Shown here: piece by piece, positions 8,301-45,257 of the stretch
How positions within the stretch are numbered: position 1 is the stretch's first letter
Layout: each line of letters begins with the position of its first letter
Assembly: GCA_947568835.1 (NCBI GenBank)
Contig: OX387602.1
Location: 6,294,570 to 6,358,569 of the forward strand
From: Protonemura montana
Lineage: Eukaryota; Arthropoda; Insecta; Plecoptera; Nemouridae
DNA length: 64,000 bases
Direction: 5' to 3'
Notes under the pieces: model-generated
Told to the model about the DNA's origin: nothing
Database searches by the model: none
What the model saw: only the letters and a program-made list of their open reading frames with translations
Translations under genes and position numbers: made by a program

Positions 8301-10866
8301 ATCACAGAGCTTGAGTCAGTGCACAACAACGCTCGGCTGCTGAGCGAGATGCTGGACTCGTATCGGCCCGGCGCGAGCTCACCTGAAGATCTCGAACTCA
8401 TCAAGGAGCTGCACCAGAGCTGCGAGCGGTTGCGGCCAAACGTCTTCCGCCTAGCCTCTGAGACGCAGGATAATGAAGCTATGCTAAGTGAGTCACGGCC
8501 CTTATTTACTAAAGAAATTGCCATATAGAAATTGCCAAGATTCACTTCATTCTGAAGAAACTGGATTGGTATTATCAAATAGCAGGACAACCGATATTGG
8601 GAAGAGTAAATTAAAACCTAGAACATAGTGACAGGCATTTCACTTGCATGCTCCAAGATACCTCTCATTATAAGATTGCATACCCAATGCCATGCACAGG
8701 TCTGTGTTGCTGGATATTAGATATTAAATTACTTTTGCTGTTGATGAAAAGAGGACATTTTACTAAGTTTATTTTGCTTGCCAATTAGTTTATAGCATCA
8801 CTCTAGATTTTTTTGTATGTGTGCGGCATTGACTGTATTTTAATCCATATGCACCTGGATCTGATAGTGCTATGAACGTCAACCTCTTCTTGATTCCCTG
8901 TTGTATCTCCATCGCCCGCAGACGAGGTGCTAAGCGCCAGTGACGAACTCGGCCAGGTATTCGACAAGTACACTGCAATAATCCTGCTTGGAAAACGCGA
9001 CGCCTTTGCGCCCACCAAGACAGTTGCGGCTGCATCCCTGCTCGACCTAAGCACGCCGAGTGAGGAGAAGTTGCCGCCTGTGCCCGTGGACCTACTCCAG
9101 TCGCAACTCGGCGGCCTGGACTTTGCCGCGCCACCTGCGTCTGATGACAACCACACCTTTGCCTCCCCACCTGTGTCACCCGCAAAACAGTCGAACTACG
9201 AGGTACTCGGCGACATCTTCGCTTCCATCCAATCGTCAGCCAGCGTCGATCCGAGTCCGGTTTCGCATGCAATGCTTCAGCCGACTAGTGCACACCATCC
9301 GATCAATCTGAAATCTGTTGGAGCAGACCTTGCTCATGTTCAGGAGAAAAACAGCAAGCTTAAAGCGCTCGACGATCTAGACTCAATGGGAGAGTCGATG
9401 CTGTTGCAGAATCTTCCGAACGCTGTGAAATTGGGGTCGCAGTTCTCTAAGTAAGTTTTAGTGGTGTACTTGAAACAGTTGGTAGTAAGTTTCTATTTTG
9501 AAGCATCGGTATTAAATCTGTAAAGGTTTTTCTTTTACTTGGAACTAGTTCAGAAAATAAGAGGTGCTAATACAAGAGTACGATACTGGATCAACTAGGA
9601 TTTTATTTGACAATTACCTCCTTGTCTTTTTCACCAGATCATCCACCAAAATACCAATGAATCTCATGAGCAAACCTCAAAGTCCAGAGTCACCCGAGGC
9701 TCAAAATCCATCTCGATTGGCAATGGATCTAGACTTCCTGATTGGCGGAGCTGTCAAAGCTGCTGCTAATCCATCATTTACGGAAAGTGTCAACGGAGAC
9801 GACTCTATGGTGGACTTGTCGGAAGATGGAGAGATATACACAGAAGTTACACTAGGCCCAAAAGCCACCGAATTGGTCAGAGGCTTCCAGCCGCCTCTTG
9901 ATGTGCCCACTCACCCCGACAAGAACTTGTTACAATCTGAAGTTGGCCAAAAGAAAGCAGGCGACAGCGCAATTCACCCTACAAGCAACGAGACACTCAC
10001 ATTTCAGGCCCTGGGTGACTGCGAGACACCGATTAAAAGATTAGAAGTGAAACCACTTACCGATATTTTTGTCTCGATAGAAAGTATTTCGCCAGGTAAC
10101 CAAATTTAGTTTAAAATCTAAAGTGTGCTTAAATATGCTTTATGGATGTCTTGTTATTTTCTAGGTCTAATTTTTTATTTTGATTTGTTTCACAGGCACT
10201 ATTCCTCCACTTCCTGTTTTGGAGGAACGAAACGGCATCTCTGTGATCTTACATTTTGCGAAAGATACACCGCGACCCGATGTTTCGGTTATTGTGGTAA
10301 CCACCATCAGCAAGAACGCATCCAAACTCTCAAATTATTTGCTGCAAGCTGTAGTACCCAAGGTTAGAGCAATAGATACTTATTTTTTACATTTAGGTCT
10401 TAAAACCTATATTTAAAAAATGCATTAAAATATGTGCCAAGTGCCAACTAATATTATTTTAATTATTTTCTTTCTTTAGACCTGCAAGCTTCGCCTTTTA
10501 CCTCCATCAAGTACAGAGCTGCCAGCGCACAGTCCTTTCTTACCGCCCTCGGCTATCACTCAAGTCATGCTCATAGCCAATCCCAACAAGGTATGTGCAT
10601 TGTAAATTACTTATAGTCGTATCATGATTTACAGTAAAATCTATCCATGTGATTGTTCCTGTATCCAATTATTGTTCTTACCACCCTAGCTACTAAATGT
10701 TGCTATTGTCTTTTTTTTTAACGATAACCTGTCATTTTACAAAAGCGATTTTACTTTTTTTCTGTTTTAGGATACAATTTCCCTAAAGTTCATACTAAGT
10801 TACACAATGGACGAGGAAACGGTCACGGAGATGGGTGACGTTGAGCAGCTGCCGATGCAAGCGTGA
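5320..10866 (+). CDS. Gga: GGA: Golgi-localised, gamma-ear-containing, ARF-binding clathrin adaptor
   Basis: Ten exons: 5320-5356, 7101-7261, 7463-7696, 7911-8087, 8268-8487, 8922-9450, 9638-10095, 10196-10362, 10480-10590, 10771-10866 (TGA); 729 residues, within the family range. GGAs are monomeric adaptors that sort acidic-dileucine cargo from the trans-Golgi to endosomes. The VHS domain covers residues 1-150 (NRATSSEN, HLIALKIQSSAEWEAMQGL, VGKFRFLNEMIKLVSPKYLG). The GAT domain, which binds ARF-GTP and ubiquitin, spans about 165-300 (LLQKLLQSKNPDDIQAANRLIK cut here to LQKLLQSKNPDDIQAANRL; LGQVFDKYTAII). The hinge has a clathrin-box-like LLDLS at about 316-320. An acidic stretch before a dileucine (DDLDSMGESMLL) resembles the autoinhibitory internal motif of some GGAs. 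The C-terminal 125 residues form the gamma-adaptin ear (GISVILHFAKD, QVMLIANPNK, LKFILSYTMD). The start was chosen because exon 1 joins in phase to the first VHS helix. Confidence 0.92.
5357..7100 (+). other. GGA intron 1
   Basis: A 1.74-kb AT-rich intron with donor gtaggt and acceptor tttgtccag. It contains several short near-repeats (for example tttactagtg near 6650 and 6903, and attacttgaatggaat near 6583 and 7005). I see no conserved ORF or RNA gene. The other GGA introns are short. Confidence 0.6.
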
Positions 10867-12600
10867 AGCGCATAGGATTTACCTGAGAGGTGGTTTTCTA
10901 GATTCGTCACACGTACATTCCACACAGCAAGTTGTGGGCCGTACAATACCTTACTTACAGAATCTTGAACGTAAGACTAAATTAATGGAAGATCTGCTAA
11001 ATTAGTATATTGCTTTTAATCAATGTTTCTTTAACTGAAGGAAATCCAAAGTCTGTGATTTGTTAAAATACTATTGAGGCAAAGAAGATACGAAGTGTGG
11101 AAACGTTTAGCGGTGGCCTCAGCATACTTATTTTAAAATTCGATTAGCTTAGCTAAATTAAAATGATACTTACACAGTCGTCAACGATACTCAAAAACTT
11201 TTCAGGAGTATTTACCCATCTCATAGTCGCCCATCATAAGTGTAATATAAATTGAAAAATGGTCAGACGTAACTCTATGTTGATATTTTTGGTTAATTTT
11301 ATTTGTTGTTTTACTGTTGATTTTTTTTTTTTTTATTTTATTGCTTAATATACTTCTTAATTTTGATGTACCTAATGTCTTTTATTTACGGTATCTTGTT
11401 GGGCTTGTTGGCTCTCCGAGTTGTGATTTATTTTGTCTCAAACTCGTAGATTAAGAAGGCGAAGCCGTTGACCATGGTGTTCGTATCTGATATGCTGGTA
11501 AATTTTATTAAATGAAAATGCATTTTACAGTTGTCTTGAGGTTTCATCCCTTCACTCACTCTACTCTCTCTTCACTCTCACACCGAGGTTTCACTCACTC
11601 TAAAATTGTTCTACCTTCTCTATCACATTGTGTATCTAGGTTTGCAGTTAAATGTGTTGATTTTGCTTGGAAACAATAGGTACACATACTTTTCAGATCC
11701 AGCAAAACTTTACTTGTGCAAATAAATGGGACCAACCAGCAGCTTTTGCCCCACACTCTAAAATATCCAATCGTATTACAAATAATTTTGATGTTTTCCA
11801 AAAAACACAAGCAAAGTACTTTAACATGATTTGAGATTTCTTCACAGCTTCTGAGGCCTTGATCAGATTAAATATATTTGTTGGGTCCGTATGGTCTTTA
11901 AAGTAGGTGAACGCTAACTTAAAATTGAGAGATCGGCTTCACATCAAAATTTATTTCTCATAATTTGCTTTAACCTGCGACTATCTTATCAAGAAAGGCT
12001 TTCATTGAGTTCGATCTAGGGCTTAAGATAAAAAAAACATCTCAGTTACCCACAAATGCTGAACATCTGTAATCAAAATAATATGTTCTTATCTTATTAA
12101 CTTCAACAAACCTTGACGTAAAACTTCAAAGAGAGGGTAACAAAAATACTAGGCACAATTTTTACTTTTATTATTTTAAGTTTTAAGCACGGATAGCCCC
12201 TGAAAATTGGATTGGATCACAAAATGTGGTGTGCTAATTTACATGCAAAACATAGTTTGTGCTTCAATTAATCAAGAAAAAGTTTTTTATCATTAAAAAC
12301 TAGCACTAACTCCCATCACAAAACTTTCAATTAAGCTCAACCAATTCTTTGGTAATGTTTGGTTACAGTTTTAAAATAGTGAAACATTTTTTTTCAAGCT
12401 AGGGGATGTTTGTACATTAAGGGTAGTTTTTATATTTCAATGTATTAATTTCAATTTTTCCTTACCAAAATTTTCTCAGCTTTCTTTTGGTATTTTTTAT
12501 TTTTTGTCATCTTAAACGGGTCGTTAGCTAGGAGCCCAAACGATGCATAAGGCGTACCCATACACTGAAAAGTGCTATAGATCGTACTGGTTCGTACAAG
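10867..12600. other. GGA 3' UTR and intergenic DNA
   Basis: AT-rich sequence after the GGA stop. The first 110 bases are the source of a downstream duplicate. No coding potential or convincing polyadenylation signal was pinned down. LST8 converges from the other side. Confidence 0.55.
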
Positions 12601-12757
12601 GGTCACAAAGATGGGAGACGTTGAGCAGCTGCTGATGCAAACGTCAAGTGCATAAGCATCACCTGAGAGGTGGTTTTCTAGATTCGTCACATGTACATTC
12701 CACACAGCAAGATGTAAGTTGTGCAATACCTTACTTACAGAATCTTGAACAAAGACT
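12601..12757 (+). pseudogene. Duplicated fragment of GGA last exon and 3' UTR
   Basis: This stretch repeats 10821-10978 in the same orientation, 1,780 bp downstream. It covers the last 15 or so codons of GGA, the stop region and about 110 bp of 3' UTR. Shared landmarks include gacgttgagcagctg, acctgagaggtggttttcta and ttacttacagaatcttgaac. The GGA stop codon (tga) is tca in the copy, so the frame runs a few codons further. There is no acceptor or upstream coding sequence, so it is a dead fragment. It lies just past the LST8 stop, probably in the LST8 3' UTR on the opposite strand. Confidence 0.88.
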
Positions 12758-14440: not shown

Positions 14441-14883
14441 TACCTCTAGTAAATATTTTGCTTACAAATTAAAATAGTGTCTCCCAAATACACTATTATA
14501 ACCTTCGGGTTTATCCGCAGGTTATCATATACTGATTTGTGCTCTGTTGACTAATCATGTATCAAAAGCGAACCAAAACACATCTTGTAGTCAATATAGA
14601 GTAATCAGACTATTAATAGGACTTCAATTAAAAATGTCAGTAAAGTACTTCTAATTTTAAAAAGATGTTCATTTCGCTCAGACTAACTGACACCTAGACC
14701 AGAGACCATAACCAAACAAATTATGAATAAGCGCTGTAGTCGGTCGGTGTACAGGTGGTTTGCGCGAAATACGAATTCCTTTGGACAAAACTGGTAGTTG
14801 TCAAGCGGATCGCGCCGCGTTCGGTTCTAAGCGTGAGCTTCAGCTGGAAGCAACTAGAATTCTAGTAAAATAACGTATAAATC
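14441..14883. promoter_or_regulatory. Putative bidirectional promoter of LST8 and CYP315A1
   Basis: 443 bp between divergent start codons. It must carry the 5' UTR and promoter of both genes unless upstream untranslated exons exist. I could not identify a definite core element or hormone-response element. Inference from spacing only. Confidence 0.45.
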
Positions 14884-17800
14884 ATGGGGAAAAAAATGTT
14901 TACGCTATCATCGGCGAGTCGATGCATAAAGCACTGCATTCGAAGTGCTTCGAGGGCGTCGGTAACGTCGGGAGTGCCCATACGACGAGAAATCAACGTT
15001 CTGCCGTCGCCACGCGGTCTGCCTGTCTTCGGAACGACGCTGTCTCTGATCGCCGCCGGGTCGGCGCCGAAATTACACGAATATATAGACTCCAGACATC
15101 GCCAACTGGGCCCTGTTTACCAAGAAAAAATTGGACACCTAAATGCTGTGTTTGTGGCAGACCCGAATGACATGCGTCGAGTGTTTGCACTCGAAGGCAA
15201 ACACCCATCTCATTTACTACCTGAGGCCTGGGTTTTGTACAACGAGATTTACGGTTGCAAAAGAGGCATTTTTTTCATGTAAGTCGATTGTCAAATTCCC
15301 TACCTCCCGAATGGCGCGAATATACAGCAATTTTAAGTGCTTGGTCTTCAAAATGTGTTTGAAAACTAAACCGTAATTGATCACGAATATATGGACGCAC
15401 ATTCATAAAAGTGGAAAATCATGAACATTGGTATGTCTTTGTTTACATTGCTGATAAGATTCCTAAGATATCTCCTGCAATGAAATTGAAGACAACGACG
15501 TCTCATTCCCGCGGGATCATTGTCCTCTCCAAGGATACCGAGACGTGATGTTTAGTTATTGCTTTGATCTGCCTTGTCATGAAAGAAATCAAGCGCGCTG
15601 AGTAGAAGCATAGATAAAAGATAGGGAAGGGAGATACGTAGCCCAAGGCAGAGCAGGTGGGCTCGGGCCTTTCTTAGTGTTACAGAATAGGAAAGCGGCG
15701 CTAGTAGTAGCAAACCGCTGTAGGTACCGCGGAATTCGAAAAAACCGTAGTGCATAAGAACCGCACCACTGCGCTAGTGGTTCTTTGTACGAGCGGATAC
15801 GCGCCGAGTTTAAAAGACCCGTAGTTCATGAAACCCAAGCCGCGCGCTAGAAGCACTTACCAACGCGCGTAGCGCTGAGTTTGAATCGGGGAACATTTGA
15901 TTTGATTTATTAGTTACAATTTGTATTCATACAGGTGGTAACGTTTTTTTTTTTAATTAAGAATATAGATAGTAAAATATAAGTAATTAATATTAATTAT
16001 AATGATAACTTTATTAATGATGATAAAAATAATAATTGATAACAATATAAATATTCACGATAAAATAATCTTAGGAACTATGAACTTCTCTCAATTTCTC
16101 CGCTCGAGTAATAGACAACAGGCAAGGTGATGATTTGTTCACTTTAGCGACTCGGTTGCTGTATCTGACATCTGTGCACTTGCTTGCCCGCTCTAAATGC
16201 TTACATTTTTTGATGTTCGGAATAACACTCGTTTTTCAATGACGTACAGCCTGAAATAATTTCCCACGACCGTAATATGCGGTCATGGCTGTCAAAATGT
16301 TCATATCAGAGACTAAACCCGGTGCTGACTGCTGATACTGCAAGAAATTCCACAAATGTAGCTTTTTGATTTATAATTATGGCACTGGCTTATCTTAAAT
16401 TATCAGCAAGTCGATTAAGAATTAATTTGTTGCGCCATTTCAAACACCGCGGAACTTTTGCTCCAACATCGACAACTATTGACTTTGCTGCTTACGACCA
16501 CTCACGGTTAATTTGCTTAACTTATACAATGTAAGAGTGTGAATAGCTAGTTTGGAACGAAGATTAAAACAGGTGTATGCAAAAATATGGGAAACACGTG
16601 GTCGCGGGTGCAAACTTGATCGCTATCGATCGACGGCCATTTGAAATGAAAGGTCGAAATTGTTGTTGTACCCAAAGAATACGTTAAAAAGGAAAACGTC
16701 AGATTTTCCATGGCAACTATTGACGCGGACACGTCAAGTTGCTCATGTTTAAATCTGAATATTCCCACTGCAGTCATTAAAGACGGCATCGTTTTCATCT
16801 ATAGCACTGAATTACTAGCTGTGCAAATAAATCACGCGATGATAGCAGCCCAAGGATGGCCGTGGCCGGGTGGATAGGTACGGTACGCACGGAAAGATAA
16901 ATCATCCAGGGTGATTCCACCACATTTTCAACTACTGCTGAAATTGTAAAAAGTCAAGATTGCACTTGATGGCGGTAATTCACTTTGTAAGTAACAATGA
17001 CGATCGACAGCCCGGGTAGTGGAAAAGAATATACCTATGCCGGCTAGCCAAGTTATTTGATAATTGTCGGAATCGAGCTTCTGACATTTTGAGGAATTGC
17101 ATTTTGGTATTTTTAACGCCGACACAGCTCTCCAAGCAACGTCAGGTACATCGCCAGTTTTGACGCGGATATGACAAGTTTTGCAGATAAAGGTCTGAAT
17201 TTTGCCGACTGTAGTAAACGATGCTATTGTTGTGGCAAAAACCACCCGGCGGCAGCTCGTCTGGGATGGTCGCGGCCCGACGAGCAGGTACGCAGGGGAA
17301 GGGTCGCAAAAACTCAGGGATATTTCTCTACAATATCAACAGCTACTGATATTTTACGAAGACGAGAGTTGGGCGATACAAATTTCAGCTCGCATGGGTT
17401 TTTCTCGGCTGCTTGAATTGTTAGTCATTTAAATAATACTCATTTCGGTTCGCTGCTCGGGCCGGCAAATTTAATTTCACAGAGCATCGAATTTGAAGTG
17501 TTTTAGTTGAACAATTAGACGTTTGGAAGACCACGGATGATACTTAATTAAAATGACACCCAGTCAACCAAACGAGCAAAATGACCTGTTCTATCGACTA
17601 CAGCAACTACTACAGTTCTAGGCCAGGTCAGGGCCGCTAACAAGAGAACGCATGGTAATCATTAATAAAAAGCAACACCCCTCACCACTGCCTGCAATAG
17701 CTGTGGACGCCCTTGATAAAATGGAAGCCTGCCCGCAGGCGTCAACCCGTCAAAGCTAAATAAAACAATAATTAACAATATTAAAACTTTCTATAACAGT

Positions 17801-20800
17801 TAATAGAATATTACCTCATCATGTAATACAATATACAAATTATTAGTGGACAATTTTCAACAGATCATTTTCTCGTACCCAATTTGAGATTTCATTAGTT
17901 GGCAATTTATTTGTGTATGTATACTTCTCTTGTATCGTTTTGTATCGACTTACTTATTCTTGCTCTTATTCAACTGTAGTTGACTTTTGTAGGCTAAAAC
18001 TTGATGAAGGGAAAGACGACGATAAAGAGGGATCTCGGCCGGAGCTTGTGGGTCCAGCAGATAACAAGTTATTTGACAGAGATTTGCATAGTTTTTTTTT
18101 GCTGCGAAATTGAAGACGAGAGAAAGGTGGGCAGAAAACATTCGCTAATTTAGATGATGCCAGTCACATTTCATGACATTATTAGGTGTGCGCGGTTCGT
18201 TAATCGAACGAGCGTTAATTTTTTGAGGAACATATATCCCTCGGGATTGCGCGACATCATCGTGTTTGTCAGCAGAAATATTGGTCACAAAAAAATACTC
18301 AGGCTGCGCAGCGCAAGAAATGTAACTAAGTTTATGTAAATGCTGCGGAATATACATGCTCGCATTTCAAATCTAAATTTATTGCTGAAAAACTATTTCC
18401 AATATCTCTCGAGTGCAGAAAACTTCGAACGATTTTAGAACAACATGCAGTTGTAATCGTGAAGTTTGTCGCTGCTGCAGTAACTGCCACAACATCTTCA
18501 ATCATGTTGAAGATAGAAAGCGAAGATGATTTATAAACCAAACCAATGAAAACCAATCGCAAGCTGAAAGCTGTGAAAATTAAATTATAAGCAACAAACA
18601 CCGTTTTGAGGAAGACAATAATTTTTACATTTTAAAGACTTGTTTGTTTTATCTTCAATCCCGTGTGCAATACCATCTTGGGTCAAAATACAGCGTTTAG
18701 GTGGCTGACTTATTATGTTGTGTGAGTTTAATTTAGGCTCTGGTTTAGGTAGTAATTGTCGATTTTGAAAATACAATGTTTTTATTCGAGAAGTTATTGC
18801 CATCAAAGAATGATACTACTTTTTTTGCATTAGAATACAAATTCTATTAAATCTTTTACTTTCCCCTCTCCTCGTGAAAAGGAAAACAAAAATTTGAAAA
18901 CAGTAGCATTCAAGACGTGAAGCAATAGGCGCCCTACCACTCATATTTTGGAAGGAAATATTTTCATATTTTTTCATAATTGGAAGGAAATTAAAGTGTC
19001 ACTCTTACAGTAGACACGGAATTAGTTAGTATGAAAACAGATGTAGATGTTTCAGGTAAGAAATCTAACTTATACTGCCCTGCTCACGACATCGCAAATG
19101 TTTTTAAGAAGATGTTTCATCCCTTATTTATTGTTCATAATCTCTAACTAATTTCGTGTACGGTAAGTTAATAACAAATAAACAAGCGACGATTTTTGTC
19201 TTAAATTGAAAATCGAAAAAGCCTTATTATTAGGTGATGTTTAGGGGTGTACAATGGTATGGTCTAATGTGAATTTTGCTATAAACTCCCTAATAAATCT
19301 GGATTGGCTGAAATTCAACAAAATATTGGATTATTTTAATGAAATTTTGATTTTCGTAAATTATTGAGGATATTCCATGGGAGAATTTTCGGTAAATCAT
19401 CACACGGTGGCCTCACAAGGTTCTTAACGAGTTGTAGCAAACTTCTGATTTAGGCCTCTACCCTCCTCGCCCATTATGGCGTTCATACGGAATGTGACAA
19501 TCAACATGAGAGCAAATCTATTTGCATGGCTTAATTCCCACGTGTTAGGTTGCTGAGTCACTAATAAAATACTCAAACAATTATTCTGCGGGAAATTTGT
19601 GGGAAATTCGGAAAAACAAACTTCGCGTCGTCGCCTTCGGTTTTTGAAGAAGTTAAAGATTGAGTGATTCGTAATTTTTTTTACATCTACAATACTTATC
19701 TTGAGGGAATAACACGTTTTCAGAAATCTTACTTATCTAATTCCAAATATAATGATTGTTTTTAATCATGCTAAAAGGAGTATAAAACTTCCGCCCGTGA
19801 TCAACGCCGAAATCTCACCAGTCAATACAATTTAGTGAGCGATAATATGTCATTAGATACCCTAAAACATGAAGATTCTAGAAATGTTAGTCTTATCTCG
19901 ATCAATTAGTTTCAATGAAACCGAGGTCCGTGTACGTCGGTGCGCGGCGCCCAATTCTGTACGGTAGCTACCGACAGCGAGTCCGGGCGAGTCGCTCTGA
20001 CTCGGGGAGACCCATAGGGAAATTGGAAATAGGGATCATGGAAATTGAACCCAAAATATATTTATTTGAAACGCAATGAGACAACTTGCACGGTCATTGC
20101 GTTTAAAATGTCCACGATCTCTATTTCCAATCTCCCTACGGGTCTCCCCGAGTCAGAGCGACTCGCCCGGACTCGCTGTCGGTGCAAGCAAGATGTCTCA
20201 TTGCGTTTCAAATAACTTGCACGGTACTATGTTGCTATGTTTATGTTAAATTATTAGCAAGTCGATAAAGAGCAAGAATAAGTAAGTCGATACAAAACGA
20301 TACAAGAGAAGTATACATACACAAATAAATTGCCAACTAATGAAATCTCAAATTGGGTACGAGAAAATGATCTGTTGAAAATTGTCCACTAATAATTTGT
20401 ATATTGTATTACATGATGAGGTAATATTCTATTAACTGTTATAGAAAGTTTTAATATTGTTAATTATTGTTTTATTTAGCTTTGACGGGTTGACGCCTGC
20501 GGGCAGGCTTCCATTTTATCAAGGGCGTCCACAGCTATTGCAGGCAGTGGTGAGGGGTGTTGCTTTTTATTAATGATTACCATGCGTTCTCTTGTTAGCG
20601 GCCCTGACCTGGCCTAGAACTGTAGTAGTTGCTGTAGTCGATAGAACAGGTCATTTTGCTCGTTTGGTTGACTGGGTGTCATTTTAATTAAGTATCATCC
20701 GTGGTCTTCCAAACGTCTAATTGTTCAACTAAAACACTTCAAATTCGATGCTCTGTGAAATTAAATTTGCCGGCCCGAGCAGCGAACCGAAATGAGTATT

Positions 20801-23800
20801 ATTTAAATGACTAACAATTCAAGCAGCCGAGAAAAACCCATGCGAGCTGAAATTTGTATCGCCCAACTCTCGTCTTCGTAAAATATCAGTAGCTGTTGAT
20901 ATTGTAGAGAAATATCCCTGAGTTTTTGCGACCCTTCCCCTGCGTACCTGCTCGTCGGGCCGCGACCATCCCAGACGAGCTGCCGCCGGGTGGTTTTTGC
21001 CACAACAATAGCATCGTTTACTACAGTCGGCAAAATTCAGACCTTTATCTGCAAAACTTGTCATATCCGCGTCAAAACTGGCGATGTACCTGACGTTGCT
21101 TGGAGAGCTGTGTCGGCGTTAAAAATACCAAAATGCAATTCCTCAAAATGTCAGAAGCTCGATTCCGACAATTATCAAATAACTTGGCTAGCCGGCATAG
21201 GTATATTCTTTTCCACTACCCGGGCTGTCGATCGTCATTGTTACTTACAAAGTGAATTACCGCCATCAAGTGCAATCTTGACTTTTTACAATTTCAGCAG
21301 TAGTTGAAAATGTGGTGGAATCACCCTGGATGATTTATCTTTCCGTGCGTACCGTACCTATCCACCCGGCCACGGCCATCCTTGGGCTGCTATCATCGCG
21401 TGATTTATTTGCACAGCTAGTAATTCAGTGCTATAGATGAAAACGATGCCGTCTTTAATGACTGCAGTGGGAATATTCAGATTTAAACATGAGCAACTTG
21501 ACGTGTCCGCGTCAATAGTTGCCATGGAAAATCTGACGTTTTCCTTTTTAACGTATTCTTTGGGTACAACAACAATTTCGACCTTTCATTTCAAATGGCC
21601 GTCGATCGATAGCGATCAAGTTTGCACCCGCGACCACGTGTTTCCCATATTTTTGCATACACCTGTTTTAATCTTCGTTCCAAACTAGCTATTCACACTC
21701 TTACATTGTATAAGTTAAGCAAATTAACCGTGAGTGGTCGTAAGCAGCAAAGTCAATAGTTGTCGATGTTGGAGCAAAAGTTCCGCGGTGTTTGAAATGG
21801 CGCAACAAATTAATTCTTAATCGACTTGCTGATAATTTAAGATAAGCCAGTGCCATAATTATAAATCAAAAAGCTACATTTGTGGAATTTCTTGCAGTAT
21901 CAGCAGTCAGCACCGGGTTTAGTCTCTGATATGAACATTTTGACAGCCATGACCGCATATTACGGTCGTGGGAAATTATTTCAGGCTGTACGTCATTGAA
22001 AAACGAGTGTTATTCCGAACATCAAAAAATGTAAGCATTTAGAGCGGGCAAGCAAGTGCACAGATGTCAGATACAGCAACCGAGTCGCTAAAGTGAACAA
22101 ATCATCACCTTGCCTGTTGTCTATTACTCGAGCGGAGAAATTGAGAGAAGTTCATAGTTCCTAAGATTATTTTATCGTGAATATTTATATTGTTATCAAT
22201 TATTATTTTTATCATCATTAATAAAGTTATCATTATAATTAATATTAATTACTTATATTTTACTATCTATATTCTTAATTAAAAAAAAAAACGTTACCAC
22301 CTGTATGAATACAAATTGTAACTAATAAATCAAATCAAATGTTCCCCGATTCAAACTCAGCGCTACGCGCGTTGGTAAGTGCTTCTAGCGCGCGGCTTGG
22401 GTTTCATGAACTACGGGTCTTTTAAACTCGGCGCGTATCCGCTCGTACAAAGAACCACTAGCGCAGTGGTGCGGTTCTTATGCACTACGGTTTTTTCGAA
22501 TTCCGCGGTACCTACAGCGGTTTGCTACTACTAGCGCCGCTTTCCTATTCCGTAACACCGATGAGTACTAAGAAAGTCCTGAGCCCACCTGCTCTGCCTT
22601 GGGCTACGTATCTCCCTTCCCTATCTTTTATCTCTGGTAGAAGGTATTATTTCAAATTAATTGTCGGGTGTTGCACAAGGAAAATTATAAACATTATTAT
22701 TTGAACGGTGCAAACATTAACATTATGATGGCAAGTGAACGAACCAATTTCAGACTTCAGTCTATGTAAATATCAACTAACTCTTGGTCCCCATAGGAGC
22801 TATAACTGATCGCCTTGCAGGGAGGGTGACGAATGGCTCAAGTACCGACGCATCATGAACGACCTACTCATGAGGGCAGACAGTGGAAGGTACTTGCTGG
22901 CCCCCTGCGACCTGGCGGCTGTTGACCTAGTCGAACGCTGGGGGGCCCAGAGGGGGCCAGAGGTCCCCCACCTCGAAGCGGAGATGTACAAATGGGCCAC
23001 AAACGGTGAGGGCCACCATTACTATTTGGTTTTCACTTTTATGCAGCAAGTCCATTCTTTGGCTGTTTTGATTTGTTGCAACTCGCATATTCCCTACATC
23101 CTTGCAGATATCCTCTACATCCTTGCAGAAATCCTCTACATCCTTGCAGACATCCTCGAACGTTAGTATATTGAACAAATACATTTTAATTCTTTATCAG
23201 GGATAAAAATAATTTGGTTTTTTGGGATAGAGCCTGCCAATTGCCACTACCGCCATACCACAAAACTATCTGACAGTCGTCTTCTGCAATGATATTTGGT
23301 TTTGATCAACCCAGTTCACATACCCGTTTTCTGTAAAGTTAGTTGTCTTCTTTAGGTCTGTTAAATAAGGATGGCCGAAGAAGGGCCACAGGTCCTTTCC
23401 AGAGAGTGGCTTTTCCCATTTGATATGTGGGAATTTGACAATTTATATCAATTACATCAATTACGAAAAATGCAGGCCCATAAATATTGTCTGTATGACG
23501 AAACTGCGTGTAAAAGGGCTTGCAAAACTAACTTTTTTGAAAAATTACAAACCCTATGGAAGTAGAAAAAAATATGCCTGATTCCCTTATGGCCTTATGG
23601 TTTTTCTAATTTCAATCTCATGGCCATTTTTTTTCTTATACATAAGAAGGTTTTTTTACATTAGGGGATTTGGTACATAAGAATATTCAGGCATGGTGGT
23701 CTGGGACTCTTTGAGGATTTTTCAATTTTCAGAAGGGTAATGCTTTCTTTCTCTCTCTCTCTCTTCCCACTCCAATATGGATGCTTTTGGCCATGCAACC

Positions 23801-26764
23801 CCCTTTAATGTGTGCTGTTATTTGTTGAAGTGATGATGGCAGTGTTGATGGGACCAGCATATGAGCGGCACAAGAAACAGCTCTCGGCGACCATAGACGA
23901 ATTTGCCAACGGCTGCCACCAAATTATGGAAAAGAGCGTGACGCTGTCGCTGATGCCTGCCAAACTTGCGGCCTCCCTTCGACTTCCGGCTTGGAAGGCT
24001 TTCGTTCAAGTTGTCAACTTTTCACTCGGCAGTGGTGAGGAAATGGCAGGACCAATATGCTAAAAATCGATCGTGAGTGCTCATCAAGCTTAATCTAGGT
24101 TTCATGTTTCTGAATAATCATTGTAAGTTTAAAATTTGTAAGTCCCATGTCTATGATACACTGCTTGTATCCATATATATATATTTTTACTTGTCAGAAA
24201 TGTTTTTTTATGATTTTTTTTTGTTTTTCCTAATTATTCAGTTTGAAATGTTATTTCAAGACAAACATAGAAAAAAAAAAAAAATTTGCTAATGATGAAA
24301 TTATAGGATGATCAAAATGTTTGAATGATGGTTTTTGGCTACTTGATTTAGCCTTTGTACTATTTTTAACAAAAACTATTTGAAATGGGTTTTGAATGCT
24401 AAGTAAAGGACAACTCAATTTCCAAATTAGTTGTCCTTTACTTTGCATTCAAAACCCATTTCAAATAGTTTTTGTTGAAATATTTGATTTTCAGAACTTT
24501 TCAGTAGCTTTGTGATTTTTCCAGTGAACAACCTGGTGAGAACTATCCTTCCAGAATGCAAGGAGAGCGACGGATTGTTGGGAAGGATGAAGGCGGGAGG
24601 GATGCAGGAAGAGTTCATCCTGCGAATTGTTGCTGATCTCATCCTGGCTGCAGGAGACACGGTTGGTTAACATCCCTTTCCTCATACACTTGCTTTTCAT
24701 CTTTATAGCAAGCCAATGAGCTAAATTATGTAATAAAAATTCCCTCCGATAGATATTAAAACACTGCAATCTTGGATTAGTTATGATATGTATATTTTTG
24801 CAGCATGCTGATTACTCAACATTCATTTTAACTAATATACAAAAAACACGCAGTGTTTTACGGGCGTGTTCGACTGGTTGCCCCGGTGCACCCCGGGTGG
24901 GCACCAGGGACGATATGCCCGTTTGACTGGCACAGTTGCTTGCTCTCGAGTCGCACCAGCTGCACTTTTCTTGCTCCGAGAATTTCGATGGTGCAATTGG
25001 AAAACAATTTAATGCACTGACAGCTAGCGATAACGTGTTTTGGTGGGAGTGCTCCCACTTGAAGCTGGTGCACGGGTGGTGCAGAGCATGATGCAACCAA
25101 GCAAGTTTCAACTAGCCCCGGTGTGGGCCAGCTAAAATCGCCATAATAATTGAGGAGTTAGACTTTAAACAACCATTAATTTGGACAGGATAATTCCAAA
25201 AAAATTCTGAGAGAGGCCCTTATTATAAGTAACAGAATTTGTAAAATATTTGTGTGTGGGAGAGAGAGGCTGGAGAACCTTCCGATTTCCGTTCGGGTCC
25301 TCGACCATCGGACAATCATAACATTCAGCCTCGACCGGACAGGCAATTGGAAAATCCCAGGTTTGTTCCCCGGTTCAGACGCACATTTCTCCAGGCTCGC
25401 TCCCTGCCATCAATCACTTACTGGTTTGAGCTCCTATGAAGAAACACTAGAGAAATAAAAAAACTTGTGTATATGTATGAGTTTTATTGCTAATTTTCTT
25501 TATTTTCTTCCAGTCTGCTTTTGCACTACAATGGATTCTTTACAAGCTGGCTGAGAATCCAGAAGTCCAAGAAGAGCTCTTTGCACAACTGAAGGATATT
25601 GACAATCCAAACGAAATTATGCAGTTGACGCTACTGAAGAATTGCGTGAGAGAAGTACTGAGACTCTATCCGGTGGCACCGTTCATTCTGCGTTACCTGC
25701 CTCAGGATAGTATCATTGGGGGTTTTCCCGTTCCATCTGGGGTAGGTACCAAAAGCAATACTCAATTTTAGTGTCAAAACTCTAATTACCTTGTCATATT
25801 GTTACGCAAAATTATGAGCAAATTGAAAAAAATTTGAGATTGATAATAAGTGGTATTTCATTTTAATGCAACATTGTGTTTTTTGACAATGGATTCAACA
25901 TCACTTGTCAAGCACAAAAGTGGTGGATGACAAGGTTATATGAGGTAAACCCAAGCCTATAAAAATACTTTACACTTGCGAAGAGCGCCAAGTCATTTTA
26001 GAGTGATACAACTCAAATAAATGTATTTCTTTGCCCATTTAAGCTTTAATAACGAACACCAATCTCTCTCTTTTATATAATAAGAATTCATCAATGAGTT
26101 TTGGAAGACAAGAAGGAAACATAACTTACAGTGCTAAAAATGTTCTATTGTTATCAGTTGAGTTTTTTTTAATCTTTCTCAATTCATTTACTTGCATTTT
26201 GGCATACTGGCCTTTTATACGATCTGATGAGCACTATTTAATGGTCACTTTCCAAAACCAGATTCAGATATGTGTTGCTTGCCTCTACGTAATTCTAGTA
26301 GGCCAGTGTTTCATCGGTAGCTTTGAGCAACATTCTAGCTCCCCTTCTATTCTTGAAACTAACAATCTCTCCAAAAAATTGTTATGCTATAAAGAACGTC
26401 TATGATGTATTGTCTAATTCAAAAATTTTTCTTCCCACAGAAACTAATTATCCTGTCACTTTACACCAGCGGTCGTGATGCAAGAAACTTTCCCGATCCC
26501 TCCAGATTTTGGCCTAACCGTTGGGCCCGGGACGTCAGTGGAAACTATGCTGGAGTAGGAAGCCCCTATGCATCACTCCCGTTTGCAATGGGAGCCCGCT
26601 CGTGCGTTGGGCGGAAAATTGCAGATGCAGAGCTCATGATCACTACTGCTAGGTTGTTGAAATCATTTAAGATTGAGCTGATTGATAAGGTGCCTGTTAA
26701 CATGGTGTTGAGATTAGTAAGTGTACCATCAAAGCCAATCAGGCTTTGGCTTACGAAACGATAA
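14884..26764 (+). CDS. CYP315A1: Cytochrome P450 315A1, mitochondrial (shadow, ecdysteroid C2-hydroxylase)
   Basis: Six exons: 14884-15278, 22821-23005, 23831-24034, 24525-24661, 25514-25741, 26441-26764 (TAA); 490 residues. CYP315A1 converts 2-deoxyecdysone to ecdysone in mitochondria of steroidogenic cells. A basic, Ser/Arg-rich N-terminus suits mitochondrial import. The proline-rich hinge is LPSPRGLPVFGT, followed by APKLHEYIDSRHRQLGPVY and YNEIYGCKRGIFFMEGDEW. The last phrase is joined across intron 1, where AT plus G makes the Met codon. The I-helix AAGDT joins SAF across intron 4. The K-helix ExxR is EVLR at about 354-357. The heme loop is FAMGARSCVGRKIA with Cys at about 438. Choice of CYP315A1 over other mitochondrial P450s rests on the remembered N-terminal block. 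Intron 1 is 7.5 kb because of an inserted foldback element. A second in-frame ATG at codon 5 is possible. Confidence 0.9.
15609..17967 (+). repeat. Left arm of foldback element
   Basis: Inverted copy of 20268-22636. For most of its length position x on the left pairs with 38235 minus x on the right. A 10-bp insertion in the right arm near 22561 shifts the outer part. Proteins read from corresponding frames of both arms are identical over 76, 81, 83 and 105 codons, so identity is close to complete. These frames look like no known protein. Confidence 0.9.
17968..20267. other. Middle region of the foldback element
   Basis: About 2.3 kb of AT-rich sequence between the arms. I found no transposase, reverse transcriptase or other recognisable frame. 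The right end contains a smaller GC-richer inverted repeat listed separately. Confidence 0.6.
19970..20183. repeat. Nested short inverted repeat in foldback middle
   Basis: About 70 bp at 19970-20038 is the inverse complement of 20112-20183 with only a few mismatches. Landmarks are accgacagcgagtccgggcg on the left and cgcccggactcgctgtcggt on the right. The loop itself holds a smaller hairpin (aaacgcaatga / tcattgcgttt), and its tttgaaacgcaatgaga is repeated inverted just outside the stem near 20194. Confidence 0.85.
20268..22636 (-). repeat. Right arm of foldback element
   Basis: Inverted partner of the left arm. Identity ends on the inner side at aagagcaagaataagtaagt (20268 onward) and on the outer side at the terminal ctatcttttatct. 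The right arm has one extra 10-bp block within the phrase gtaacaccgatgagtactaag, absent from the left arm. Confidence 0.9.
23091..23157 (+). repeat. Short tandem repeat with acceptor-like phrase in CYP315A1 intron 2
   Basis: Three to four copies of a roughly 21-bp unit containing ctacatccttgcag. Each copy ends in a pyrimidine stretch plus CAG, like a splice acceptor. The used exon 3 acceptor lies about 700 bp downstream. Confidence 0.75.
24368..24476. repeat. Near-perfect hairpin (MITE-like) in CYP315A1 intron 3
   Basis: Two arms of about 48 bp starting aacaaaaactatttgaaatg and ending with its inverse complement, with a loop of about 12 bp. Only one mismatch (gctaag versus gcaaag) was seen in the stem. 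A related single-arm sequence occurs near 8115-8150 in GGA intron 4, suggesting a dispersed miniature element. It lies entirely in the intron, about 50 bp upstream of exon 4. Confidence 0.85.
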
Positions 26765-26864: not shown

Positions 26865-28225
26865 AAAGCGTCAGAATTTATATTCTTCAAGTTTTTTGGT
26901 AAAACATTGTAAGGTTTTGAACCTAAGGTTAAGGGGTACTTCATTTACAAATTTTAACCCTAATGTCCTTTTTTCCTCTCGTGTCATGATTGTGATACAT
27001 TTCATTATATTGGTTTATTCTTCTGTTTTTGACTGTGTACATAATAAGAGCATGTATATAAATGCAAGGTAGACTTAGAATTGAAAAGCGCATGAAGAGA
27101 GGTTTGCACGAGACCTTGATATAAATTAAAGAGCAAGGATTTCTACTTGCTCTTGCCATGTATCTTCTTGTTCGCTTTTGTAAAATAAATATTCTTTTGG
27201 CATGCAATGAGCCTCCCCAAAGCAATATACCATACATTAATAGTGATTGAAAGTGGGCAAAATATATTTGTTGCACTAATTTAAAATTAACAACATTCAT
27301 CATCCTTTTTATAAAATATGCTTTGGGAGCAAGCTTATTACAAACCCCTTTGATGTGTTATTTCCAATTCAGTTAAAAGTCAATGGTAATCCCTAAATAT
27401 TTCGTTTCCTCCACTTGTTTTAAGCATTTTTCTTCGAGTCTCACTAAAGGAGAGAATTGCTGGTCTTGTTTGGAAGCCAAAAACCTCATAAAAACAGATT
27501 TGTCTCTGTTGATAAATAAGCTTTTGTCAATACTCCAACGCTCTAGTTCTTTTACCGCTTCATTCGCACAGTTGCTAAGGTCATTGCTATCTGTGGTTAC
27601 TAGGTGGGTTGTATCGTCCGCAAACAGTGTTAATTTCCCTTCCTGTATTTTGGTTGGTAGGTTGTTTGTGAACAATATAAATAAGAGTGGAGAGATGTTC
27701 GACCCTTGAAGCAGTCCTTCTTCCAGAGTAGTCTCTTCCGATACATTTTTTTGACCTTTGCTGGTCAGACTTACAATTTGTTTTCTGCTACATACCTAAG
27801 TAGGATTTTACCCAATGCTAGCTACGCCTGATGTGCCAAGGTTTAATTTGACGAGGAGAATTTTATGATTTACTGAATCAAACGGCTTAGAATAGTCATA
27901 ATATATCCCCATGGTAGATTTCTTTTTCTAGCGCCTCTGTAACTTCATTGATATATCCTACCAGCGCCGATGTGGTTGACTTACCGCATACGAACCCATG
28001 TTGGCGGTCATTTATAATCTTATATTTTTCAACAAATTTTAACATCCTCCCACAGAATGCTTTCTCGCAAATTTTCGAGAATACCGAAATTTGGGCAATT
28101 GGTTGGTTAATAGCTACATTTGTCCTGTCTCCGTATTTATAAAGCGGGATCAGGTCAGGGGCGAAGAACTGGCGCCGGCGCCGATGGTTTCTTGCTATTT
28201 CTTGATAAATTTCGGTGAGTGACAT
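26865..28225 (-). mobile_element. Decayed non-LTR retrotransposon, reverse transcriptase part
   Basis: Minus-strand fragments of one reverse transcriptase in shifted frames. From 28225 downward: LIPLYKYGDRTNVAINQPIA and SVFSKICEKAF; motif A as DYSKPFDSVNHKIL near 27870; motif B-like LLQGSNISPLLFILF near 27700; the catalytic FADDT near 27620; then a thumb region with HFQSLLMYGILLWGGS near 27240. Frameshifts and stops separate these blocks, and the endonuclease part is absent, so it is a 5'-truncated dead copy. The motif style fits the Jockey/CR1 group of LINEs. It lies between CYP315A1 and kinesin-5. Confidence 0.88.
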
Positions 28226-28787
28226 TTCGATTAGAGGAATCGGTTTCTGGAACTAGAATAGTCTTTGACTAGAATCATGTTCGTCAATCATTAAATTATG
28301 ACGATCTTGATCAGGAAAGTCATTGTGGGAGCTAAACAGTGCTATAGGGAAGCTATGCCTGACTGGGAATGTTGGAAAGGAATGGGAAGAAAAAATCTTT
28401 TAGTACTATTTACCAAAACATGACTCACAATAATACAAATTTCCCAAATTTTTGCACATAAAATATTTCCGAAATATTTGATATGCGCTGATAATGCGCT
28501 GAAAAATAGTTAGCCGATAGGACACAGATATCAAATCACGCGGAGAATTCGCGCCCTTGTGTTTACCATAACACTTCTTGCTGATTGGTTGAATGAATTG
28601 ATTGGTTACTCAAGTTTTTGAACGTTTGTCAGCCAACCGTCAAAAGTTCGTGTCATTTTTTGGTGGGCGACATCACAGCGCGTAACGACTAAAGTTTGCT
28701 TGGTACGCTTTGGCTGCGGGCTTCGGTATTGTATACTTTTGGTTAGTTTCGTTGTATATGGTTGTAAGCCCTTAACAGATAATTAAA
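28226..28787 (+). promoter_or_regulatory. Upstream region of kinesin-5
   Basis: About 560 bp between the LINE remnant and the kinesin-5 start codon. It should contain the promoter and 5' UTR. No specific motif was identified with confidence. Confidence 0.45.
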
Positions 28788-31700
28788 ATGGATTCTAAAC
28801 AGAAGAAAACTAAAGACAACAGCAACGAAAATATCCAAGTGTTTGTGCGAGTGAGGTAAGACTAATGTTTTATTTTGTGGTTCTTTCTACCTATTTTACT
28901 CCATGTGGCCAAAATGTTTGTAGTCATTCAAAATTACTTTAGTGCTGCAGTGAACTTGTGTACGGCTAGGGCATGCTTTAGGCACCCACCTACCTACCTC
29001 TACAACATGTTGATGCATCAGGTTCATCACTACATAGGACAGAGAAAAACTTGCTCTTTCATCGGTGTGGGTTGTAAAAATTACGATCCAGTGTTAGTAA
29101 TGCATTTGTATGGCCTATCAGTTCTGCAACACCATCCACAGTTCTAATTTGTTAGCGTAGCTCGGATATTTTATCTGTATTATTTAAATAGACATGTTGG
29201 CCGGTCGAGCATCTTTTATTTGCCAGCAGAGGATTATATCAGTGGACATAACTGGGTCTCAACAAAGCCGTTTATGTCTCCAAAGTCGTGTCACTTTCCT
29301 TCACGGTCTCCTATTATCAATCATTTAATAACAAACAACTTCCTATGAACAAATCTCTTCTGCAATATATTTTATTGAGTATTTTTTTGGATCTCTGGTT
29401 TAAAGGGAAATCCTGTGAATGCCACTTGAAGTTCTAGCTTGTTAATATTTATCTAATTGTACGTTTTTAGTAAGTAGGTGACTTAAGACTAACTTTATTT
29501 TCAGGCCACTGAATGCCAGTGAGCAACGCAGCAAATCTATCACTGTCGTTGATACGACTAACAAAGACGTAGTTGTCAATGAGCGCCCAACTGATCGAAT
29601 TACTAAAACGTTCTCATTTGACAGAGTTTTTGACCAAGAATCGAAACAGGTAAACACTTTTAACTTAATGCTGTCGCTAACTAGGTGTCTTAATTACACT
29701 TTTGATTATTTAATTTCAATCAAAGATTTCAATAATTGAAATCACTGTCACTGTGTACCTCACAGAGCAATGAGTTCAGTGGTGCTTGGCTGCACCTCAG
29801 GAGTCTTGCCTATTCAAATAGCTGGATCAGGGTAATGGAGGTGCAGGACCTAATTTATCTCCATTTCATGTATTACTGTGTCCTTCATTTCGTAGTTGTG
29901 TGTGTGACAGATTTTGTTGATTGTTTTAGATTGAGGTGTACAAAGCAGTGGTTGCTCCTCTCATTGAGGAAGTCCTTGCTGGGTATAATTGCACCGTCTT
30001 TGCATATGGCCAGACCGGAACCGGCAAGACCTTCACAATGGAGGGAGATCGATCTGGTGACCCGGGTGTGTCCTGGGATAATGTAAGCTTTTCAAATTAC
30101 AACATTTTCTATTCATTTGAGCATTGTGCAGTGTCAATTTTGACTAGCTGCCCTGGTGCCTGTCGGAAGTGCAATAAGGGCAATTTTTCAATTTGGACTG
30201 GTCAGCAACATTATTTGTCTTTGACTGACAAGTCTCCTTGCTCTTAGGTGTGCACATTTATTGAATTTTTTTGTTGTTGTAATGAAATCAAATGAATGTA
30301 CCGACTGCTTAACTAGGCGGTAGGACTCCCTTATGACGGCAGTGCAAACAAGGTGTTGAGCGCGAAGTAATAGAGCCGGTTTCAAACCTGTGCCGGTACA
30401 GGCCAGTAAAAATCCTCAATAGATTAGTATCTTGTCACATTGTTTCTTTTTCCAAGGCATATTTTGAAAAAGTTTTATTTTAAGCAGAAGCTTGACTCTA
30501 AATTAATTTGTGATTTTGGACTCCAGTCAATGTGAATTTCAAACTTGCCATATTGTACTTAACGTTACATTTTTAATGAACTTGTTCAAAGGTACTGTAG
30601 GTTTCCAAGTGCCCAGCTATGCATTCACTTTTGTTATTGTTTTTATTGTTTTACAAAGTACATTGTTTAACAATTTTTTAATATTACTAATAACTTAATA
30701 CAAGTACTAGCAGAACCGGATGCCTAACGGCACCTTAAGATTTTGAGGGATTGTGCATTTTGGTTTTAATGTAAAGCCTCTAATGGGACCACAACCAAAA
30801 GTACCCCAATTTATTTTATTTGAAATTTGCCGCTTATTTCACTTGGGGTCACTGCATTGTGGAAACTCTGTGAATTCCAAAGTGACCCCGATGACAATTT
30901 CGAAAACAAACGACGTTGGCTGTCAAAAGATTTCCGTGAAATATTTCTTAGAGAGTGAAACTTGTGAAATTCCTTTTACATCTCCACCAGATCTTACTAA
31001 AAACGTGTTTAAACAACGGATATGCATTTAAAATTGACAAAATGTAAGTTTTTTCGGTAATATAGTTGTTTGACATTGTTTGAGAACTGTCAAAACCTTC
31101 CCTTGCCAGCCAATTTTAAATAAAATTCATAACGAAAATCCCATCAAATCACCGTATAAATGTCGCGTTGGGTCGTGCTCTGAAGTCATGTAAGATTTAA
31201 AATTATTCCCAGCAATGTTTGACTGGTTTCTAAAAAGTATTTGACGTTCTAATCCTTTTTGACGTTTAAATATCCTGAATGCACTGCCGCAAAGATAAGT
31301 TTAAGAATTCGTTCACCCTGCAGTGGTCAAAAAACCAAAAAAATGAATGCATCTGTCAAACTTTTTGCAAAATTATTTCTATTTCACTTAAAACGAACGT
31401 AAATAACAGCGTTTGTGCTCAATTTCTTCAATAACTTTCATAGGCATGCATAAACAGTATTACCAAACTGCTGCGGGTGAGTAAAAGGCAAGTTTTGAAT
31501 CAAATAAAAATCGAACTGTGAGACATGGCTCCAATTTTCCTAGGCAGGAAATTTCAAACACAATTATCAATATTTCACCAAAAAAACGCTTTCAAATCAC
31601 CCTCAAAGTGTCACAATAGGATAGAGATTTTAATTTTGAACAATTATAACCCAATTGCACACGTTTTTAACCAAATTTCGCAATTTAAATCAACATGTAC

Positions 31701-39398: not shown

Positions 39399-40575
39399 GG
39401 AATAGAAAATGAATGAATGTTCGTGAATTTTGCACTTAATTTATAAGTATGTATTTTATTATTGGAATATTTTATCTAAAAGAAATTCTCAAAAATGTAT
39501 AGTGCAATAAGAAATATTGGAATTCTCTTAGATGTTGTTTAGTTTATTTGTTTCTCGCACAGTGACGTTACAAATGTTATAAATTCCCCCTTGAAACAAA
39601 TAAACTAAACTAAAACTAAAACTGATACATTTTTCCACGGCTTCTTACGTCGATGCACAAGAATTGTCACCTGTTTTTGCAATCTGTCACTCAAAATCAA
39701 TATAAGTCGGAATAATCTCTAAAAAAAACGTATTAAGTACCTTTTTTGGTTATTAAAAAATCTGCATTCCATGCTTAGGTTGCTAGCAATGGAAAGTTGA
39801 GCCACAGGTGAATTGCATAAAAGTCAGAAATAACATTTTCGTTTGAAATTGAAATTGAATTTTTATTGAAATTTGTTTTCATTCCTTCCATTATTGATTG
39901 AGTATTGGTGATTTCTTTTGATATAAGCACCCAAAAATCCTTGAAAAACTTTATTTGACACTATCATTACCCAACTCACTTGTAGAAAACTTTGCTAAGC
40001 TAATACTGTTTAATGCTTTTTCAAAAAGGAAAAGGGTAACTAAAAAGGAATTCCAGGGCGATTGAATAAATTCTAATATGATTTCCACTATTTGCCAACT
40101 GCGCAACAACTCCCTTGAGGCAAAACATTCGTTATTAGGGTGAAACGACAAAGTAAATGAAAGAACTCCCATATATTATATTAATAGGCCTAAAATTTCT
40201 CTGGAACTACTATTTGTTCAAATTGTCATGTTTTACAGTGGAAGATATTCTCATTGACTAATTGCCAATTATTAAAGCATAGCTGGAAATTGCTAAGAGT
40301 CAATTTCATCACCAGAAATTGTTTATAAAGACATCTATCCAACACTAGCTTGCTAGATAATATTTAAAATTTCCATGTTTTTTATTCCAAATCTGAATTA
40401 ACAAATAACCAACAATAGTTGTGTCTATCACACAACTGAACCAAATGATCTCTAAATATCTTTACAATAATGCACATTATTCTGCGTGGTATACTTTATT
40501 TCTTTATTTATTGCGGCTCTTCAGGCTATATAATATAAAAGTATATAACAATAATATTTATACAAATATAGAGAA
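39399..40575. other. Intergenic AT-rich DNA
   Basis: About 1.2 kb with no recognisable gene or RNA. A phrase near 39540 (gtttatttgtttctcgcac) and an inverted-looking counterpart near 39594 (gaaacaaataaactaaac) suggest a minor short inverted repeat. Confidence 0.5.
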
Positions 40576-44477: not shown

Positions 44478-45257
44478 TGGTTTTCAAAGGGCCATATTAA
44501 GAAAATTAACAGCATAGCCGGCGACCCTGTTAAGATGCGAAGACTAGCAAAAATACATTATTAGCCTGTAGGTACAGAAAACGCATAATAATATATCCGC
44601 CATGTGCAACTTGAATATGCCGCTGGTTGGGGTCAAGTAATTTTAAATGTAGCAGGCGGTGGCCGAGAACTGCCAAATCTTGGCGCAAAATCTCGCTACA
44701 TTTGTGTGCGAGCTTATTTTTCTTTTCTCATCAATGTTCGTGGACATCCTCGTTAGTCGTAGACACATGTATTGTCAATTTCATGTGACATTTATCTAAT
44801 TTCTCTCGGTAAGCAAGTTAATTGTTCTTTGCCAGACACTTTTTAAAGCAAAAATTATTCTTTAGGTTATGGCATAGAAAAAGGATTAGGTTAGGTTATT
44901 GGCTCCCCTAGGGAGTGGAAAGGGGAATGATTTTGTATTTCCAAACTCTATGGTCTTAGACTAAAGATAGGATTAAGAAAAGTAGGTAGGAACTTCCATC
45001 AAATTTGGAAGTAATATATCCAATTTCTATGGAATTTATTTTTACTTCAGTATTTTAAAAGAAGCAGAGCAAACAGCTCCAGCCAATTGTCGGTACTATT
45101 TTTTGGGATCAGTTCCTATCAAGATGAAGTTATTATTTGACATCCTAAACTTACGATTTGCCAACAAAAAATTAATTAAAAGATTGCCTTATTGTTAAGT
45201 ACAACCTCATTTTTTAATTCTATTTCAGGGTTCTTTTTCAACTTACCATTTGGCATA
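44478..45257 (+). promoter_or_regulatory. Upstream region of TOPBP1
   Basis: 780 bp between repeat copy D and the TOPBP1 start. It should contain the promoter and 5' UTR. No definite motif was identified. A short GC-rich stretch occurs near 44640-44710. Confidence 0.4.

What the first reader, a model, noticed from the sequence alone, without database searches (positions are those of the whole stretch)
15602..22643. 7-kb foldback transposon with 2.36-kb near-identical arms inside the ecdysteroid gene CYP315A1
Two 2.36-kb arms are almost perfect inverse complements around a 2.3-kb middle, with matching ends (CA[T/G]AGATAAAAG) and a perfect 7-bp flanking repeat GTAGAAG. The palindrome is therefore probably an inserted element and not an assembly fold. 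No transposase was recognised. Arm identity implies recent insertion or ongoing gene conversion between arms. The transcript would fold into a 2.3-kb double-stranded stem in a steroid-hormone gene intron, a possible source of small RNAs.
Basis: partly seen in the sequence, partly recalled or inferred. Interest (0 to 1): 0.8.

Follow-up and report, generated by a model that had tools for sequence, protein, structure and literature searches.

The report
Foldback transposon in hormone-gene intron
A 7-kb piece of mobile DNA with two long mirror-image arms has inserted in the first intron of a P450 gene (probably a moulting-hormone gene of an arthropod); it looks like an ordinary transposase-less foldback transposon, notable mainly because the arms match perfectly except at their outermost tips.

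Summary
A 7,028-bp element (15609-22636) has two inverted arms of about 2.37 kb around a 2.28-kb middle, flanked by a perfect 7-bp repeat, GTAGAAG. New here: 2,283 bp of the arms match without one difference, while the outer 76/86 bp carry 4 substitutions in 76 aligned bases and a 10-bp indel (Fisher p about 1e-6). Tips and arm bodies therefore have different histories, or the assembly evened out the arms. The arms hold a diverged internal direct repeat. The element lies in a GT-AG intron that joins two exons of a mitochondrial-type P450 in frame; without it the intron would be 507 bp. No Pfam transposase was found in six frames of one arm plus the middle. Best reading: a non-autonomous Foldback-type DNA transposon moved in trans, its arms lengthened or evened out by break-repair copying of one arm onto the other. 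The superfamily is open: duplication length fits Galileo (P superfamily), the right-end CAGAG recalls hAT. No host genome, second copy, reads or small RNAs could be examined. New member of a known kind; modest interest.

The parts
15279..22820 (+). Host-gene intron (GT-AG, 7,542 bp; 507 bp without the element and one target-site copy)
   Evidence: Donor CAT|GTAAGT and acceptor TTGCAG|GGAGGG join the two P450 exons in frame.
15602..15608 (+). Left target-site duplication GTAGAAG
   Evidence: Sequence.
15609..15684 (+). Left outer terminal repeat, 76 bp, diverged from the right one
   Evidence: 4 substitutions in 76 aligned bases and a 10-bp gap against the right tip.
15685..17967 (+). Left arm body, 2,283 bp, perfect reverse complement of 20268-22550
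   Evidence: Exact test.
16695..16962 (+). Diverged internal direct repeat, unit 1 (left arm)
   Evidence: Local alignment score 86 against at most 40 in 300 shuffles within 40-base blocks; blastn 69% over 81 bp, E 2.3e-6.
17138..17371 (+). Diverged internal direct repeat, unit 2 (left arm)
   Evidence: As unit 1.
17968..20267 (.). Middle region, no recognised coding sequence; its orientation to the flanks cannot be fixed without reads that cross an arm
   Evidence: Pfam scan of six frames of 15609-20260 with X at stops, E up to 1: one TMEM154 match at E 0.39, 11 bits against a cut-off of 30.3.
19970..20183 (.). Short hairpin within the middle, 77-nt arms
   Evidence: 94% complementary; 19960-20230 folded as RNA -168.5 kcal/mol, z -19.66.
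20268..22550 (-). Right arm body, 2,283 bp
22551..22636 (-). Right outer terminal repeat, 86 bp, with 10 bp absent from the left
22637..22643 (+). Right target-site duplication GTAGAAG
   Evidence: Sequence.
14881..15278 (+). Mitochondrial-type P450 exon 1 (the stretch searched begins at 14881)
   Evidence: Pfam p450 E 4.4e-9; best PDB matches cholesterol side-chain cleavage enzyme and vitamin D 24-hydroxylase, both mitochondrial.
22821..23003 (+). P450 exon 2, as far as translated here (183 bases; its 3' end was not determined)
   Evidence: In-frame continuation ...GIFFM|EGDEWLKYRR....

Best explanation
It is one insertion of a non-autonomous Foldback-type DNA transposon. Shown: matching but unlike tips, a perfect 7-bp target duplication, very long inverted arms with an internal diverged direct repeat, no recognisable transposase, and a position within an intron that still joins its exons in frame. 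Inferred: a transposase encoded elsewhere recognised the tips and inserted the element by cut and paste with a 7-bp stagger. Inferred: the short tips are the older ends, and a double-strand break in or near one arm was repaired by copying the other arm, from just inside the tip (76/86 bp from the end) to 17967/20268, which lengthened or evened out the arms. Inferred: the element is removed with the intron; the stem in the transcript may feed small-RNA pathways.
For: Arms and tips; 4 of 76 against 0 of 2,283 differences, Fisher p about 1e-6; target duplication and its chance control; internal direct repeat; no Pfam transposase at E up to 1 in one arm plus the middle; intron frame. The same process, recruitment of internal sequence into terminal repeats by repair of a break from the other arm, is suggested for Galileo in D. 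mojavensis (PMC3573991, Discussion read in full), and a 9-kb Galileo copy with arms over 4 kb and no transposase segment is described in D. willistoni (PMC4168063, section on TIR structural variation).
Against: Only one copy could be seen: no host genome is held. Left arm plus middle has no similar sequence in the rest of the window at E 1e-3. Two tip patterns gave 0 and 0 stretches in viral contigs and 0 and 1 in prokaryote genomes, the one match ending about a base after the shared run. Mobility is therefore inferred from one target duplication. The perfect arms could be an assembly effect. Which arm was copied, and whether before or after this insertion, is not known.
Confidence: 0.82

Rival explanations
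1. The element is real but the perfect arm identity is an assembly effect: reads anchored in unique flanks resolve only the outer tips, and both arm bodies received one shared consensus.
For: Every difference lies within 76/86 bp of unique flank or at the edge of the unique middle, as short-read bubble removal or polishing would leave it (inference).
Against: No N in the window and a continuous path through both arms; a long-read assembly would be less prone to this. The sequencing method is unknown.
Confidence: 0.25
2. Member of the P superfamily, Galileo-like: foldback arms and a 7-bp duplication GTAGAAG.
For: Galileo makes 7-bp duplications with consensus GTANTAC (PMC4168063 passages and section 12; PMC2775673 passages, GTAGTAC); here 4 of 6 defined positions match. 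Galileo arms are long and internally repetitive.
Against: 3.7% of all 7-mers of the window match as well. Of the wider motif halves quoted, the empty site read matches by eye 4 of 8 defined positions for Galileo and 4 of 8 for P/1360. No transposase or THAP sequence. No TNNGGGNW motif (motif recalled) in either 150-bp tip; 7 in the left arm on both strands, where the window's rate would give about 5. The tips were not compared with Galileo tips, whose letters were not at hand.
Confidence: 0.35
3. hAT element with an 8-bp duplication that lost one base; the right end CAGAG resembles hobo, Hermes and Tol2 ends (recalled).
For: Right end CAGAGATAAAAG.
Against: 7-bp, not 8-bp, duplication; hAT terminal repeats are given as 10-25 bp with 8-bp duplications (PMC3942097 passage); the left end is CATAG.
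Confidence: 0.2
4. Mutator-type foldback element; a passage in PMC4079207 says that most foldbacks seem to belong to Mutator.
For: Long arms without transposase; that passage.
Against: Duplications of Tetris, put in Mutator by its authors, are 8-10 bp; here 7.
Confidence: 0.2
5. Chromosomal inverted duplication, not a transposon; the 7-bp repeat is chance.
For: Large palindromes also arise by replication error (general knowledge).
Against: Exact 7-bp repeat at both arm ends (chance about 6e-5; 91 of 20,000 with +-3 bp slack); without the element a normal 507-bp intron remains.
Confidence: 0.03

Closest known systems
Galileo (P superfamily, Drosophila)
   Same: Long, internally repetitive terminal repeats; copies without transposase; 7-bp duplications; the two arms of one copy 98-100% alike; arm growth by break repair suggested.
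   Different: Target site matches GTANTAC at 4 of 6 positions only; no P transposase seen; tips not compared.
Tetris (foldback, D. virilis)
   Same: Foldback arms with internal repeats, middle domain without apparent coding capacity, no autonomous copy found (passages).
   Different: 8-10-bp duplications; assigned to Mutator by its authors.
Foldback (FB) of D. melanogaster
   Same: Long inverted arms, foldback anatomy (recalled).
   Different: FB arms are made of short tandem repeats and its duplications are 9 bp (recalled).
hAT elements
   Same: CAGAG at the right end (consensus recalled).
   Different: 8-bp duplications and short terminal repeats (passage).

Membership tests
Foldback-type DNA transposon (structural class) | Long inverted arms separated by a middle region | tested here: met
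Foldback-type DNA transposon (structural class) | Internally repetitive arms | tested here: met
   Two diverged units, score 86 against at most 40 in 300 shuffles. Only two units, not a tandem array; the tandem-repeat finder lists in each arm only an 18-bp AT-rich array of 3.1 units.
Foldback-type DNA transposon (structural class) | Target-site duplication at the arm ends | tested here: met
   GTAGAAG on both sides.
Foldback-type DNA transposon (structural class) | Several dispersed copies | not testable with these tools
   No host genome held.
Galileo / P superfamily | 7-bp duplication near GTANTAC | tested here: inconclusive
   Length met; 4 of 6 defined positions, as in 3.7% of the 7-mers of the window.
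Galileo / P superfamily | THAP-type P transposase | tested here: inconclusive
   None in this copy, as in many non-autonomous copies; an autonomous partner could not be sought.
Galileo / P superfamily | Conserved terminal 40 bp | not tested
   Galileo tip sequences were not at hand.
hAT superfamily | 8-bp duplication | tested here: not met
   7 bp; the neighbouring bases differ.
Mutator superfamily | Duplication of 8-10 bp (range quoted for Tetris) | tested here: not met
   7 bp.

The most novel reading that the evidence does not exclude
A Galileo-like P-superfamily foldback element (in the passages seen here Galileo is described only from Drosophila) caught just after one arm was copied onto the other: the diverged tips mark where copying began, and the 10-bp (about one helical turn) difference between left and right tips is a functional asymmetry of the ends, kept outside the copied tract.
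Probability: 0.15. Interest if true: 0.5.

Novelty: new member of a known kind. Interest (0 to 1): 0.3.

Why it matters
If long reads confirm the perfect arms beside diverged tips, this copy is a clear snapshot of how foldback arms grow, a step that the Galileo paper read here argues from comparisons between copies. A 2.28-kb perfect hairpin in the first intron of a probable moulting-hormone gene would also make a natural test of whether intronic foldbacks feed small-RNA pathways.

Tried and rejected
Transposase remnants: none in six frames of one arm plus the middle. The longest open frame, 135 aa, is reached in 17 of 200 block shuffles, so it is no evidence for coding. Rfam at gathering scores: nothing in the element; one match in the window, 5S rRNA. 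tRNA scan: 0 in the window. THAP-type motif TNNGGGNW (recalled): 4 and 3 in the left arm on the two strands, 66 and 64 in the window, none in either 150-bp tip. Arm against middle: the 26-bp match at 16390 and 20241 scores 44, below the best of 30 shuffles (55), and the inverted comparison 41 against 59, so neither is significant by that control. The first 1,900 bp of the middle against its own reverse complement scores 64 against at most 57 in 30 shuffles, a weak imperfect palindrome at about 18878-19126; a palindrome counts its matches twice, so that control is too lenient, and I make nothing of it. Phage collection, distant blastn with 15609-20259: no match. Tip 27-mer: 0 in viral contigs, 0 in prokaryote genomes. 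Tip 20-mer: 0 in viral contigs, 1 in prokaryote genomes, a Desulfurobacteriaceae MAG where similarity ends about a base after the run and the 8,000 bases fetched hold no second exact copy; taken as chance. Paper search for a tip 15-mer: 0 papers. The listings of searches showed no report that I could recognise as this element; they cover open-licence PMC papers only. In one search the printed comparison of the inner junction is out of register by one base and was not used; the junction is taken.

Full report
Observation. Arms 15609-17975 and 20260-22636 align over 2,377 nt at 99.3%, around 2,284 nt. The element is 7,028 bp. It is flanked by GTAGAAG at 15602-15608 and 22637-22643. An exact 7-bp repeat at both ends has a chance of about 6e-5, and 91 of 20,000 random boundary pairs of this window have one within 3 bp.

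The arms are not uniformly alike. From 15685 to 17967 the left arm is the exact reverse complement of 20268-22550, 2,283 bp without a difference. Outside that core, the tips differ at 15611, 15665, 15668 and 15684 and by a 10-bp indel, thus 4 substitutions in 76 aligned bases against 0 in 2,283 (Fisher p about 1e-6). Three further differences at 17968, 17969 and 17972 mark the inner edge, where similarity ends.

Internal anatomy. Each arm holds a diverged direct repeat (left arm 16695-16962 and 17138-17371; local score 86 against at most 40 in 300 shuffles within 40-base blocks; blastn 69% over 81 bp). The middle holds a compact hairpin at 19970-20183 (fold of 19960-20230, z -19.66). Six frames of 15609-20260 with X at stops give no Pfam match up to E 1 except TMEM154 at E 0.39, below its cut-off. 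The longest open frame is no evidence of coding (17 of 200 shuffles reach it).

Surroundings. Exon 1 matches Pfam p450 (E 4.4e-9); its best PDB matches, of 11 distinct sequences at E up to 0.01, are mitochondrial steroid and vitamin D P450s. One of three frames of 22801-26801 matches p450 at E 6.2e-36. Donor 15279 and acceptor 22820 join the exons in frame; the intron is 7,542 bp and would be 507 bp without the element and one target-site copy. The species is unknown; an arthropod is likely if the name is right.

Mechanism. The simplest account is a non-autonomous foldback DNA transposon moved in trans. Unlike tips beside perfect arm bodies suggest that one arm was copied onto the other from just inside the tip. 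Such a process is suggested for Galileo in PMC3573991 (Discussion read in full; other passages). One Galileo copy with arms of 4.2 and 4.7 kb and no transposase segment is described in PMC4168063 (section 6; passages; section 12). Whether copying happened before or after this insertion is open. The rival that weighs most is an assembly that gave both arms one consensus; the pattern of differences would look the same.

Family. The 7-bp duplication fits Galileo, consensus GTANTAC, but only 4 of 6 positions match, as in 3.7% of the window's 7-mers, and of the wider site motif quoted only 4 of 8 positions match (by eye). The right end CAGAG recalls hAT (recalled), whose duplications are 8 bp and terminal repeats short (PMC3942097 passages). 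Dada makes 6-7-bp duplications, but its U6 and U1 families are said to have no terminal inverted repeats (PMC3706591 passages); set aside. Tetris, a foldback with 8-10-bp duplications, is put in Mutator by its authors (PMC4079207 passages). PMC2775673 was seen as passages, PMC3688188 as passages and one section. I leave the superfamily open.

Limits. One copy, no host genome, no reads, no small-RNA data. The tip patterns found no second copy in the viral contigs and one chance match in the prokaryote genomes, and blastn found none among phages; none of these is a collection of animal genomes.

Noticed in passing
19970-20225: Compact nested hairpin in the middle of the element (77-nt arms 94% complementary), with a second 28-nt inverted pair (20062-20089/20188-20215) and a 12-bp direct repeat AACTTGCACGGT (20083-20094, 20214-20225): looks like serial small inverted duplications or a nested MITE.
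   Followed up: partly
20241-20271 and 16390-16420: 31-nt, 90% repeat that sits across the inner end of the right arm and recurs inside the left arm; not significant against 30 shuffles by local score.
   Followed up: partly
30705-32860, 42854-44478, 40574-40639: A repeat family with units of roughly 1.08 kb in tandem at two places, 91-98% alike by blastn, with a further copy of its first 66 nt at 40574 shortly before a 10-bp satellite at 40755-42089.
   Followed up: no
62317-62437; 47080-47444; 6688-6888: 5S rRNA match (51.2 bits) overlapping a repeat with relatives at 47080-47444 (85%) and, inverted, 6688-6888 (69%); possibly 5S-derived repeats.
   Followed up: no
24364-24480: 117-bp palindrome, 57-nt arms 93% complementary with 3 nt between, in the stretch between the second P450 exon and the last P450 match.
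   Followed up: no
26901-28899 (-): Reverse transcriptase (RVT_1, E 9.9e-19) downstream of the last P450 match, a LINE-type remnant by appearance.
   Followed up: no
10818-10978 and 12598-12757: Direct repeat of about 160 bp, 87% alike.
   Followed up: no
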